Shown here: positions 10,085 through 38,273 of the stretch, piece after piece | Position numbering within the stretch: the stretch's first letter is position 1 | Layout: every line of letters begins with the position of its first letter | Source: Halovivax limisalsi | GTDB lineage: Archaea; Halobacteriota; Halobacteria; Halobacteriales; Natrialbaceae | DNA length: 64,000 bases | Reading direction: 5' to 3' | Assembly (NCBI RefSeq): GCF_023093535.1 | Contig: NZ_CP095757.1 | Location: 1 to 64,000, forward strand | The notes under the pieces: model-generated | The model's database searches: none | Told to the model about the DNA's origin: nothing | What the model saw: the letters and a program-made list of their open reading frames with translations, nothing else | Translations under genes and position numbers: made by a program

Positions 10085-12064
10085 TCAGCGCAGGTCGACG
10101 CGGTGATGTTCCGCCCACGCCCCGCGGTCGAGGACGACGAGTTCGCCCTCGCCGAAGACGTAGAGGTAGTCTTCGACGTACATCGCCCGGACGCCGGGGC
10201 CGCCCAGGTCGACCTCGGTCTCGCGGGTGAGGTTGCCGTCCGCGTACGAGTAGACGTAGCTGGACTCGCCCGCCGGGACGAAGAACGCCCCGTTCTCGGC
10301 GTCGTGGAGGAACGCCCGGTGATTCTGGACCGCCTCGGAGAAGCGCTCGTCCTCGAGGATCTCCGCGTCCAGTTCGTCGGGATTCTGTCGGTCGCTCACG
10401 TCGAAGGTCGAGAGTTTGACCTTGCCGTCCTGCTCGCCGACGCCGAGGATCAGATCGCCCGCGTCGTCGAGCGGGTGCAGGTACGTCGAGAAGCCGGGAA
10501 TCTTGAGTTCCCCTTCGAGCGCCGGGTTCTGCGGGTCCGAGAGGTCGAGCGTGTAGAACGGGTCGATCTGGCGGAACGTCACGACGTAGCCCTCGTCGCC
10601 TTCGAATCGGACGGCGTAGATCCGCTCGGTCTCGCCGAGTCCCTGGACGGAGCCGGTGACCTCCAGCGCCGAGTCGAGGACGTAGACGTCGTTCACCGAG
10701 TCGGCGCCGTGGCTCCCCGGAATGGTGGTCGCGATCCGGAGGTGCCCCTCGTGTTCGTCCATCGACCACTGGTTCAGCGGGAAGCCGGGGACCTCGCCGC
10801 TGTCGGTCACTTCGAGGTCGCCGTCGATCGCAATGCGGGCGATACCGGTGGTCGTGAGGTCGCGCTGACGCTCTTCGGCGTAGGCGGCCAGTCCGTCGTC
10901 CATTTTCTCGTGGGCCTCGCGGCGCTCCTCGTCCTCGAGGCCGTCGAGCCACGAGTCGAGGATCGCCTCCAGTTCGACGCGCTTGGCCCGTTCGGAGATG
11001 TCGAGGTCGTCGAGCCTCCGGAGTCGGTCGACGGTGTCGGCGTCGAGGCCGAGGTCGTCGACGCCGGGGCCGGTGAGGTATCCGGACATGACCTCGTAGT
11101 CGGAGACGGAACGCGTGTAGCTGAGGTAGATCGCGGATTCGGAGACGTAGGTCGCAGACCGGCGCTGCGAGCCGACGACGCTGGTCTCGTCGGTGACCTC
11201 GCCGGTCGCGGGGTCCACGCGGGCGGCCGTGTAGACGGCGTCCGCGTCGGCCTGGGCGCCCGGGCGATAAACCTCCGTACACGGCACCGGGTCGCCGCCG
11301 AAGCCGGCAACCGGGCACGGGTTCGCCCCGTCGGGTCGGTCCACGAGGACGAGGTAGAGTTCGCCGTCGTAGAGACGCGCTGTGTCGAGGTCGGCGTCGA
11401 GCGGTTCGCTCCAGGCCTGCTCCGGGTTCGCGGGGTCGCTGACGTCGTAGCCCCAGAGCCGCTCGTTCTCGAAGACGACGAGCGTCTCCGTCTCCTCGAC
11501 GAGCAGGAGTTCACCCGCGGCTGGGATCGTCGCGACCGGCTTCGGTTCCGCCGGATCCGACAGGTCGAGGACGCTCGTCTCGCCGTCGCCGCGGTGGAAG
11601 CGATACCCGCCGTAGAAGGCGCTCTCGCCGTCGGTCTTCAACACGTCCGGTTCGTCGAGGGCGGCAACCTGGCGGTTCGTCTCGGAGACGTCGCGATCGC
11701 CGGCCGTACCGGACGTCCCGCTCGAATCACCGGCAGCATCCTCGGCGTCTCCGCCGGTGGGTGCACCGTCGGCTCCATCGCCGCCCCCATCGGCTCCGCC
11801 AGCGGCGGCGTCATCGGCCTCGAGTCCCGCGCTAGTCACCTGCGGCCTCATGAACAGATAGCTGTGACGCTCGGCGTTTCGAAAGTAGCGCTCGAACGCC
11901 GCGTCGGACTCGAACTGTTCGAGCGTCGAATCGCCGGACGCGCTCCATTCGGTCGGCTGCGACGCTGGTGACTGCGGTGCTCCCGCGAACGTGGCCCCGA
12001 AGGCCGCCCCGACGAGAAGGGCGGCCGCCGCGACCGCGACGATCGTCGATCGTGATACGTCCAT
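10085..12064 (-). CDS. secreted beta-propeller domain protein
   Basis: A 659-residue exported protein. The N terminus (MDVSRSTIVAVAAAALLVGAAFG) looks like a Sec signal peptide or anchor, followed by a Ser/Pro linker. The rest matches the Beta_propel family (PF09826): repeated beta-strand blades such as YHLHPL-like and DLSDPQNPALEGELKIPGF, DVSDRQNPDELD and VYVLDSALEVTGSVQGLGETERIYAVRF. An acidic Gly/Asp/Ala-rich stretch of about 45 residues lies near residues 90-130, and a helical insertion near 350-415. I use the ATG with complement at 12062-12064; an upstream GTG would lengthen the signal region. Role at the cell surface unknown. Confidence 0.85.
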   Translation of the reverse strand: MDVSRSTIVAVAAAALLVGAAFGATFAGAPQSPASQPTEWSASGDSTLEQFESDAAFERYFRNAERHSYLFMRPQVTSAGLEADDAAAGGADGGGDGADGAPTGGDAEDAAGDSSGTSGTAGDRDVSETNRQVAALDEPDVLKTDGESAFYGGYRFHRGDGETSVLDLSDPAEPKPVATIPAAGELLLVEETETLVVFENERLWGYDVSDPANPEQAWSEPLDADLDTARLYDGELYLVLVDRPDGANPCPVAGFGGDPVPCTEVYRPGAQADADAVYTAARVDPATGEVTDETSVVGSQRRSATYVSESAIYLSYTRSVSDYEVMSGYLTGPGVDDLGLDADTVDRLRRLDDLDISERAKRVELEAILDSWLDGLEDEERREAHEKMDDGLAAYAEERQRDLTTTGIARIAIDGDLEVTDSGEVPGFPLNQWSMDEHEGHLRIATTIPGSHGADSVNDVYVLDSALEVTGSVQGLGETERIYAVRFEGDEGYVVTFRQIDPFYTLDLSDPQNPALEGELKIPGFSTYLHPLDDAGDLILGVGEQDGKVKLSTFDVSDRQNPDELDAEILEDERFSEAVQNHRAFLHDAENGAFFVPAGESSYVYSYADGNLTRETEVDLGGPGVRAMYVEDYLYVFGEGELVVLDRGAWAEHHRVDLR

Positions 12065-12229
12065 AGCTGTCCGATCGTACCGGACACACATGATATCGAC
12101 GCAAGGTAAAACGACGATTTCACTGACCGGGTCGGGGCGATAGAGCGTTCGAATCGTTCGAGCGAGGAAGGGACTGGGCCGTTCTGGAGGCGACGAATAG
12201 CAGTATTCGAGAGCGGCCCCGTCGTCACG

Positions 12230-12667
12230 CTATTCCCAGGCCCAGCCCTCCTCGGGACCAGACGTCTCGTTAGTGGACTTCCACGCCCATCCTTCCTCCG
12301 GAGCTGACTCCGCGTCGTCCGTGCTCCACGCCCACCCTTCCTCCGGAGCTGACTCCGCGTCGTCCGTACTCCAGGCCCATCCTTCCTCCGGAGCTGACTC
12401 CGCGTCGTCCGTACTCCAGGCCCATCCTTCCTCCGGAGCTGACTCCGCGTCGTCCGTACTCCACGCCCACCCTTCCTCCGGAGCTGACTCCGCGTCGTCC
12501 GTGCTCCACGCCCACCCCTCCTCCGGGTCGGGCTGACCCGGCGCTTCGTCCGACCCGCCGTCGTCAGCAGTTGTACTCGCACTCGCCCCGGCGAGGGTGA
12601 GGGCTGCCAGTCCGATCGATCGGAGGACGGTCCGACGGTCGCGGTTCGTCGTAGGCGTTGGTGCCAT
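12230..12667 (-). CDS. Tat-exported peptide with seven GWAW repeats
   Basis: A 145-residue protein. The N terminus RDRRTVLRSIGLAALTLAGA is a twin-arginine signal sequence. After an acidic spacer the whole mature chain is seven copies of PEEGWAW: five are in 15-residue units (PEEGWAWSTDDAESA), the sixth continues KSTNETSG and the seventh ends WAWE at the C terminus. The mature chain has 14 Trp and very many Asp/Glu and no Cys. I recognise no family. It could be a cell-surface adhesive or metal/ligand-binding repeat, or a precursor peptide; no modifying enzyme or dedicated transporter gene lies next to it. The ATG has its complement at 12665-12667, with an AT-rich promoter region upstream. Confidence 0.75.
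   Translation of the reverse strand: MAPTPTTNRDRRTVLRSIGLAALTLAGASASTTADDGGSDEAPGQPDPEEGWAWSTDDAESAPEEGWAWSTDDAESAPEEGWAWSTDDAESAPEEGWAWSTDDAESAPEEGWAWSTDDAESAPEEGWAWKSTNETSGPEEGWAWE
12292..12516. repeat. five tandem 45-bp units inside the GWAW gene
   Basis: Five direct repeats of 45 bp begin at 12292, 12337, 12382, 12427 and 12472. They differ from one another only at a few positions (for example ACGCCCAC against AGGCCCAT), so the array is recent or homogenised. The period equals 15 codons, keeping the frame. Confidence 0.95.
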
Positions 12668-12689: not shown

Positions 12690-12770
12690 ATTTAGTAATT
12701 GTGCTAATATATATTAAAATACATAATATTCGTATCTATTTCTGCTCCGTGATTAATCCTGGGTTAATAC
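12690..12770 (-). promoter_or_regulatory. AT-rich promoter region of the GWAW gene
   Basis: About 80 bp with far higher A+T than its surroundings, including ATATATATTAG and several TTAAT-type runs on the minus strand, directly before the Tat peptide start. It may also carry signals for the thiolase gene that starts in the other direction. Confidence 0.45.
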
Positions 12771-12875: not shown

Positions 12876-14012
12876 ATGACGCGAACACCGGTGATCGCGG
12901 CGGCGGTCAGAACGCCCCAGGGCAAAGAAGACGGCGTCTTCGCCGACGTCCGCAGCGAGGACCTCTCGGTTCCGTTGATCGATCACATTCTCGAGGAGCA
13001 CGGACTCACCGGCGAGGACGTCGACGACCTCATGTGGGGCGTCGCCGGCCAGCGGGGCGAACAGGACAACAACGTCGCGCGCGTCATCGCACTGCTCTCC
13101 GGGCTCGGCGAGGGCGTCCCCGCGGCGACGATCAATCGCTGGTGCGCCTCGTCCATGCAGGCCGTGATGTCCGCCTCGGACGCCATCCGAGCAGGCCAGC
13201 GCGAGTGCGTCATCGCGGGCGGCGTCGAGAACATGTCCCGCGTGCCGATGCAGGGAGCCGACCGCGAACTCCACCCGCAACTCGCCGAGGAGTACGTCAT
13301 CACCGACCTGATGATGGGGATGACCGCGGAGGAAGTCGCCGAGCGGTACGACGTCTCCCGGGAGGAACAGGACGAGTACGCCGCCAAAAGCCAGCAGCGG
13401 GCCGTCGAAGCCACCGAGGAGGGCCGCTTCGACGACCAGATCGTCCCCATCGAGACCGAGGAGGGAACGGTCACCGAAGACGAGGGGCTGCGTCCGGGCA
13501 CGACGGCCGAGAAGCTGGCCGACCTCCCGCCGGTCTTTACCGGCACCGGCACGGTCACCGCGGGCAACGCCTCGCAGATCTCCGACGGCGCCGCCGCGCT
13601 CCTCGTCACGAGCGAGGCGTTCGCCGAAGACCACGGCCTCGAGATCATGGCCGAGGTCGGCGACAACAACGTCGCCGGCGTCGACCCCACGGTGATGGGC
13701 ATCGGGCCCGTCCCCGCGACCCGCGGCCTCCTCGAGCGCACCGGCCGCGACATCGAGGATTACGACCTCGTCGAACTCAACGAGGCCTTCGCCAGCCAGA
13801 CCGTCTACGCCCGCGACGAACTGGGCATCGACCCCGAGATCTTCAACGTCAACGGCGGCGCCATCGCCATCGGCCACCCGCTCGGCGCCTCCGGCGCCCG
13901 CCTGCCGGTCACGCTGATCCACGAACTCGCCCGGCGCGGCGGCGGGCGCGGCCTCGCGACGCTCTGTGTCGGCTTCGGACAGGGGGCGGCGATCGACTTC
14001 GAAGTTCGGTAA
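12876..14012 (+). CDS. thiolase (acetyl-CoA C-acyltransferase)
   Basis: A 378-residue thiolase. The acyl-accepting cysteine lies in NRWCASSMQ (Cys90), with [14 protein letters not shown] downstream, [17 protein letters not shown] carrying the catalytic His near 334, and the second cysteine in [10 protein letters not shown] near 364. This is a degradative/biosynthetic thiolase-II fold of normal length; whether it cleaves 3-ketoacyl-CoA or condenses acetyl-CoA cannot be decided. It may work with the acyl-CoA synthetase encoded at 16.8-18.8 kb, but they are not in one operon. Start supported by the TATA-like box at 12843. Confidence 0.95.
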
Positions 14013-38110: not shown

Positions 38111-38197
38111 GCCTGGTCGTTCGCGTGCGCGACTAATGGATTTGCGGATATCCGTAGGTAGCGGGAGGGCCGCTGATGGCGCGTCGATCCCAGCTCC

Positions 38198-38273
38198 GCT
38201 CACTGCTCGACGGTCCGTGCACCGTTCGACGGTCCGTTCACCGCTCGCCGGCCCGCTCACTGGCCGACGGCGT
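38198..38273. repeat. four degenerate 19-bp direct repeats
   Basis: Units begin at 38198, 38217, 38236 and 38255 with a shared pattern G-TCAC-G-TCGACGG-CC. They fill the space between the CPBP gene start and the pgi stop. No protein family is encoded here. Possible protein-binding array or slippage product. Confidence 0.6.

What the first reader, a model, noticed from the sequence alone, without database searches (positions are those of the whole stretch)
12230..12667. Tat-exported peptide consisting of seven acidic GWAW repeats
After a twin-arginine signal the mature chain is almost entirely PEEGWAW repeats (15-residue period, near-identical at DNA level). The combination of export in folded form, 14 Trp with no Cys, and extreme Asp/Glu content is not one I can place in any family. 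Options are a surface adhesin, a repeat that binds a ligand or metal through acidic/indole clusters, or a precursor whose repeats are modified. No maturation enzyme lies next to it, which weakens the last idea.
Basis: partly seen in the sequence, partly recalled or inferred. Interest (0 to 1): 0.75.

Follow-up and report, generated by a model that had tools for sequence, protein, structure and literature searches.

The report
Genus-specific secreted acidic GWAW-repeat peptide
One genus of salt-loving archaea carries a small gene, absent from all other genomes searched, for an exported, very acidic peptide built from one to seven copies of the motif GWAW; natural selection clearly keeps the motif, but nobody knows what it does.

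Summary
In detail: window 12230-12667 (-) encodes a twin-arginine (Tat) signal followed by seven PEEGWAW repeats with a 15-residue period. The gene is real: orthologues sit at the same locus in three of the four other species of the genus held. In all 22 motif copies of the four genes only third codon positions vary (D/E, G and A codons); GWAW itself never changes.

The new fact is copy number. Two orthologues have seven repeats, but G031 has one: a 50-residue precursor whose predicted mature peptide is about 16 residues and ends in PEDGWAW. A sister genome (G029) lacks the gene. In 26 outgroup loci the flanking thiolase and beta-propeller genes adjoin with nothing between, so the gene is an innovation of this genus. 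No homologue was found in family-, order- or class-wide samples, phages, plasmids, viral contigs, Pfam, NCBIfam, PHROGs or PDB.

The propeller is not an obligate partner: each gene occurs without the other. Tat export does not imply a folded cargo; AlphaFold confidence is about 46. Best reading: an orphan secreted linear-motif peptide in which one [DE]GWAW unit is active and tandem copies raise dose or avidity. A multivalent surface protein, or a dispensable lineage-specific repeat, remain possible.

The parts
12230..12667 (-). Gene of the GWAW-repeat secreted peptide (145 aa)
   Evidence: orthologues in the same frame and place
12566..12667 (-). Tat signal peptide, about residues 1-34 (RRTVLR plus an uncharged stretch; no lipobox Cys; cleavage site read by eye from AxA/TTA, not predicted by a program)
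   Evidence: RRxVLR invariant in four species
12632..12637 (-). Twin arginine (R11-R12)
12236..12526 (-). Array of seven PEEGWAW motifs, 15-residue period; motif copies at 12506-12520, 12461-12475, 12416-12430, 12371-12385, 12326-12340, 12281-12295, 12236-12250
12704..12719 (-). TATA-like AT-rich box (TTTTAATATATATTAG) about 37-52 nt before the start codon; a similar box lies before the G031 gene
   Evidence: sequence; archaeal promoter inferred, not tested
10085..12064 (-). Downstream neighbour: secreted PF09826 beta-propeller protein (context, not shown to be a partner)
12089..12114 (-). Element TTTNACCTTRCGYCGNTATCATGT conserved before the propeller gene in four species, including G029, which lacks the peptide gene: the propeller probably has its own promoter
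12876..14012 (+). Divergent neighbour: thiolase gene (context)

Best explanation
An orphan secreted-peptide gene of one haloarchaeal genus. The precursor is exported by Tat and cut by signal peptidase I (inferred from sequence), leaving a hydrophilic, acidic, probably disordered chain in which [DE]GWAW is the conserved, selected element. One unit (acidic linker plus [DE]GWAW, with GWAW at or next to the C-terminus) is the active entity: a short linear motif that binds something outside the cell. Tandem duplication and unit-to-unit homogenisation raised the copy number to seven in three species, increasing dose (if extracellular proteases cut the chain into peptides) or avidity (if the chain stays whole). 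Shown: gene, conserved signal motif, conserved motif, copy number 1 or 7, genus restriction, independence from the propeller. Inferred: export, cleavage, disorder. Not shown: the binding target, any processing, any activity.
For: Four orthologues at one locus. Invariant RRxVLR and GWAW. All 22 motif copies vary only at third codon positions. Within-array pN/pS 0.14-0.47; signal-to-first-motif pN/pS 0.50-0.81 between species, including G031 (0.50-0.74), so the one-repeat gene does not look decayed. Linkers differ between species (STDDAESA, ETRGSDER, xTADTDHPD) while the motif does not. G031 is MRSTDAGRRSRRHVLRSITAGAGVLAGASTFAAATEDGGDEPDPEDGWAW-stop: one unit, ending in GWAW. G030 and G032 also end exactly at GWAW, the window gene at GWAWE. 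AlphaFold mean pLDDT about 46 in two orthologues. RNA folding is ordinary, z -0.41.
Against: No conserved processing site in the linkers. No transcript, protein or activity data. G031 may be a recently collapsed array on its way out, and G029 has lost the gene altogether. Four sequences are a thin basis. AlphaFold places a weak beta strand at each WAW, which may point to a repeat fold rather than disorder.
Confidence: 0.4

Rival explanations
1. Multivalent surface or matrix protein: the whole chain acts as sticker (GWAW) and acidic spacer, or stacks one WAW strand per 15-16-residue unit into an aromatic face that binds polysaccharide, S-layer or other cells.
For: Seven copies in three species; regular 15-16-residue spacing; both AlphaFold models put a short strand at each WAW.
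Against: G031 has one repeat with conserved signal and stop; model confidence is very low; the unit has almost no residues for a hydrophobic core; no anchor (no lipobox Cys, no C-terminal membrane helix).
Confidence: 0.25
2. Lineage-specific secreted repeat with little or dispensable function, gained once and already lost or shrunk in some species.
For: Absent outside the genus; lost in G029, reduced to one unit in G031.
Against: Motif invariance in 22 copies and pN/pS below 1 in arrays and heads show that the protein sequence has been under selection.
Confidence: 0.17
3. Ligand of the adjacent PF09826 beta-propeller (for example one motif per blade).
For: Same strand, immediately upstream in three species.
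Against: G031 keeps the peptide gene and lacks the propeller; G029 and 33 genomes of other genera have the propeller without the peptide; the propeller has its own conserved upstream element. The adjacency is explained by insertion into an old thiolase-propeller interval.
Confidence: 0.06
4. Multi-core RiPP precursor: Trp in WAW is modified (for example a Trp-containing cyclophane) before export.
For: Repeated short cores with an invariant aromatic motif; a single-core relative exists.
Against: No maturase recognised among the nearest genes scanned; radical-SAM counts are 13-15 in all five genomes and YcaO 1-2, with no difference that follows presence of the gene.
Confidence: 0.07
5. Trp-codon leader peptide (attenuator) that senses charged tRNA-Trp for the downstream gene.
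For: Many Trp codons in a short upstream ORF.
Against: Conserved Tat signal at protein level; downstream gene differs between species (propeller or DUF5806) and is not a tryptophan gene; no unusual RNA structure; GWAW rather than Trp runs is conserved.
Confidence: 0.02

Closest known systems
Multicopy secreted peptide precursors (yeast alpha-factor type; from general knowledge)
   Same: Signal peptide plus tandem near-identical short units with invariant motif and variable linkers; copy number varies between relatives.
   Different: No conserved processing site, no known receptor, exporter of the prepeptide is Tat; not shown to be cleaved; archaeal.
Haloarchaeal antagonistic precursor HapP/HFX_0892 activated by halolysin (PMC12893001) and halocins
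   Same: Secreted haloarchaeal precursor that can yield a bioactive peptide by extracellular proteolysis.
   Different: HapP is activated through two alpha helices in its N-terminus; this chain is acidic, Trp-rich, repetitive and has no predicted helix in the mature part.
Haloarchaeal lanthipeptides and other archaeal RiPPs (PMC12144867)
   Same: Short ribosomal peptides exported by haloarchaea.
   Different: No Cys at all, so no lanthionine is possible; no gene-tracking maturase found.
Insect antifreeze beta-solenoids with a TxT motif per 15-residue coil (general knowledge)
   Same: One X-x-X aromatic or polar pair per 15-16-residue unit.
   Different: Fold not supported by the models (pLDDT about 46), no core residues, one-repeat orthologue.
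MC1 chromosomal protein (PF05854)
   Same: Contains the only other in-frame [DE]GWAW in a recognisable gene among the genomes of the genus (EGWAWEETAPDDKPDW).
   Different: Intracellular DNA-binding protein, no similarity beyond five residues; a chance match is likely.

Membership tests
Haloarchaeal Tat substrate, class I signal | RRxhh motif followed by an uncharged stretch | tested here: met
   RRTVLR / RRGVLR / RRHVLR / RRGVLR plus an uncharged or nearly uncharged stretch in four orthologues; read from sequence, no TatFind run
Haloarchaeal Tat substrate, class I signal | Actual export and cleavage by signal peptidase I | not testable with these tools
   needs secretome mass spectrometry
Haloarchaeal Tat lipoprotein | Lipobox Cys 12-21 residues after the second Arg | tested here: not met
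   no Cys in any of the four proteins; definition from PMC2945643
Multicopy secreted peptide precursor | Signal peptide plus tandem identical units | tested here: met
   but one unit only in G031
Multicopy secreted peptide precursor | Conserved processing sites between units | tested here: not met
   linkers differ between species; only P near the motif is shared
RiPP precursor | Cognate modifying enzyme linked or co-occurring | tested here: not met
   nearest genes scanned are ordinary; radical-SAM and YcaO counts do not follow the gene; other enzyme classes not searched
RiPP precursor | Modified residues in the mature peptide | not testable with these tools
   needs mass spectrometry
Lanthipeptide | Cys and Ser/Thr in the core | tested here: not met
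   no Cys
Obligate beta-propeller partner | Co-occurrence of the two genes | tested here: not met
   G031 has peptide without propeller; G029 and 33 genomes of other genera have propeller without peptide
Beta-solenoid repeat fold | Confident repeat fold | tested here: inconclusive
   weak strand at each WAW, mean pLDDT 46.5 and 45.3
Any Pfam, NCBIfam, PHROG or PDB family | Match above cut-off | tested here: not met

The most novel reading that the evidence does not exclude
The gene is a multicopy precursor of an archaeal extracellular signalling or antagonistic peptide: each unit is released as a short acidic peptide ending in [DE]GWAW, with dose set by tandem copy number (1 to 7) and recognition by an unknown receptor, comparable in design to yeast alpha-factor and so far without a described archaeal example known to me.
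Probability: 0.12. Interest if true: 0.78.

Novelty: new variant of a known kind. Interest (0 to 1): 0.42.

Why it matters
Archaeal secreted peptides are poorly known. This family is small, clean and testable: a genus-restricted gene with an invariant five-residue motif, natural variants of one and seven copies, and a near relative that lacks the gene (about 95% identical DNA around the locus). If a unit proves active it would be a simple system for archaeal peptide communication or antagonism; if not, it is a well-dated example of a newly arisen secreted repeat gene under selection.

Tried and rejected
Propeller partnership: rejected as obligate by reciprocal absence. Radical-SAM or YcaO maturase: no tracking difference. 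Plasmid hits are an Enterococcus KPEESTSPSEDKTEV repeat and other composition matches without Trp. The second G031 hit is an unrelated lipoprotein signal. RNA structure: ordinary. DNA-level function of the repeat: rejected because variation in the motif is confined to third codon positions. Literature: no paper found on this motif; 'GWAW' returned only unrelated papers. MC1 similarity: a five-residue match; by my own estimate about one [DE]GWAW is expected per five proteomes, so treated as chance. Polarity of 1 versus 7 repeats: the genus tree from thiolase is unresolved apart from G029+G032; a shared variant unit (KSTNETSG, RSTDGEPV, ESTDTEHP) suggests, but does not prove, that an array is ancestral to the three seven-repeat species.

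Full report
The observation. Window 12230-12667 on the minus strand encodes a 145-residue protein with a twin-arginine signal and seven GWAW motifs at a 15-residue period. The array is the strongest tandem repeat of the window (45-nt period, 96% matches, score 438). There are 14 Trp, no Cys, 37 acidic and 5 basic residues, pI about 4.05. An earlier in-frame ATG exists at 12691, but the alignment with the G031 orthologue favours 12667.

Relatives. Of 125 genomes of its family, only its own genus gives real matches. G030 and G032 carry seven-repeat orthologues; their units are ETRGSDERPMDGWAW (15 aa) and xTADTDHPDPDEGWAW (16 aa). In G031 the same place, next to the same thiolase gene, holds a 50-residue ORF, MRSTDAGRRSRRHVLRSITAGAGVLAGASTFAAATEDGGDEPDPEDGWAW-stop: the same signal with one unit. 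G029, about 95% identical to G032 in the conserved DNA around the locus, has about 91 unrelated bases where G032 has 640 bases including the gene.

Origin. In 26 loci from other genera of the family the thiolase and the PF09826 propeller genes are direct divergent neighbours with no gene between them. The peptide gene was therefore inserted into, or born in, this interval in the ancestor of the genus, and lost in G029. A profile of the four proteins finds nothing outside the genus in 293 genomes of the order; a C-terminal [DE]GWAW-stop pattern finds three genus members and three unrelated Arg-rich frames in 391 genomes of the class. Pfam, NCBIfam, PHROGs, PDB, phages, plasmids and viral contigs give nothing.

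Selection. In the 22 motif copies of the four genes, first and second codon positions never vary; variation is confined to the third positions of the D/E, G and A codons. Copies within an array are not independent because they are homogenised, but the four lineages are separate. Within arrays pN/pS is 0.25, 0.47 and 0.14; between species over signal and first motif it is 0.50-0.81, and the comparisons with G031 lie at 0.50-0.74, so the one-repeat gene shows no sign of decay. This is good evidence that the gene is translated and that the motif matters as protein. An ordinary RNA folding energy (z -0.41) and the codon pattern speak against a nucleic-acid function.

Export and structure. All four proteins share RRxVLR and an uncharged or nearly uncharged stretch, and none has a lipobox Cys; cleavage at AxA-like sites is read by eye. 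Tat export is not evidence of a folded cargo here: 39-55% of haloarchaeal secreted proteins use Tat (PMC2945643), and Tat passes unstructured hydrophilic stretches of 100-120 residues (PMC6708511), about the length of the mature chain. AlphaFold models of two orthologues have mean pLDDT 46.5 and 45.3, with a weak strand at each WAW. Disorder, or a fold that needs a ligand or high salt, are both compatible.

Partners. The adjacent propeller (PF09826) is absent in G031, where the peptide gene persists, and present without the peptide gene in G029 and 33 genomes of other genera. It has its own conserved upstream element in four species. It is not an obligate partner. Radical-SAM genes (13-15 per genome) and YcaO genes (1-2) do not follow presence of the peptide gene.

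Mechanism. I take one unit as the active entity: a secreted acidic peptide whose [DE]GWAW motif is a short linear binding motif, with tandem copies raising dose or avidity. The one-unit gene of G031, with a predicted mature peptide of about 16 residues ending in GWAW, is the main reason; the diverging linkers around an invariant motif are the second. Haloarchaea are known to release active peptides from secreted precursors through halolysins (PMC12893001), so such processing is plausible, but there is no conserved processing site and no activity data. The main rivals are a multivalent surface protein and a lineage-specific repeat of little importance.

Novelty. No family is matched. The design (signal plus tandem short units) is known from multicopy peptide precursors; the sequence, its restriction to one genus and its 1-or-7 copy number are new as far as these collections show. 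I rate it a new variant of a known kind, with moderate interest because function is unknown and the family is tiny.

Noticed in passing
L354 (G000:C1:590730-590744) and orthologues L329, L330, L333, L335: The MC1-family chromosomal protein (PF05854) of all five genomes of the genus contains EGWAWEETAPDDKPDWMP, the only other in-frame [DE]GWAW in a recognisable gene; probably chance, but a curious match to the repeat unit.
   Followed up: partly
window 12089-12114 (-) and the same place in G029, G030, G032: Conserved element TTTNACCTTRCGYCGNTATCATGT just upstream of the PF09826 propeller gene; possibly its promoter or an operator.
   Followed up: no
L260 / G031: G031 lacks the propeller gene that lies between thiolase/peptide gene and the DUF5806 gene in the window species; otherwise gene order is kept.
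   Followed up: partly
L314 (G162:C1, around 2793077): A haloarchaeon of another family encodes an acidic protein with GWSLGDSS and WDWGDSDSS repeats; unrelated in sequence but similar in style (acidic with repeated WxW).
   Followed up: no
window 38195-38271: Four copies of a 19-nt repeat (TCCGCTCACCGCTCGACGG) in the short interval between a CPBP-type membrane protease-like gene and a gene that looks like glucose-6-phosphate isomerase (both on the minus strand; names from reading the sequence, not from a family scan).
   Followed up: no
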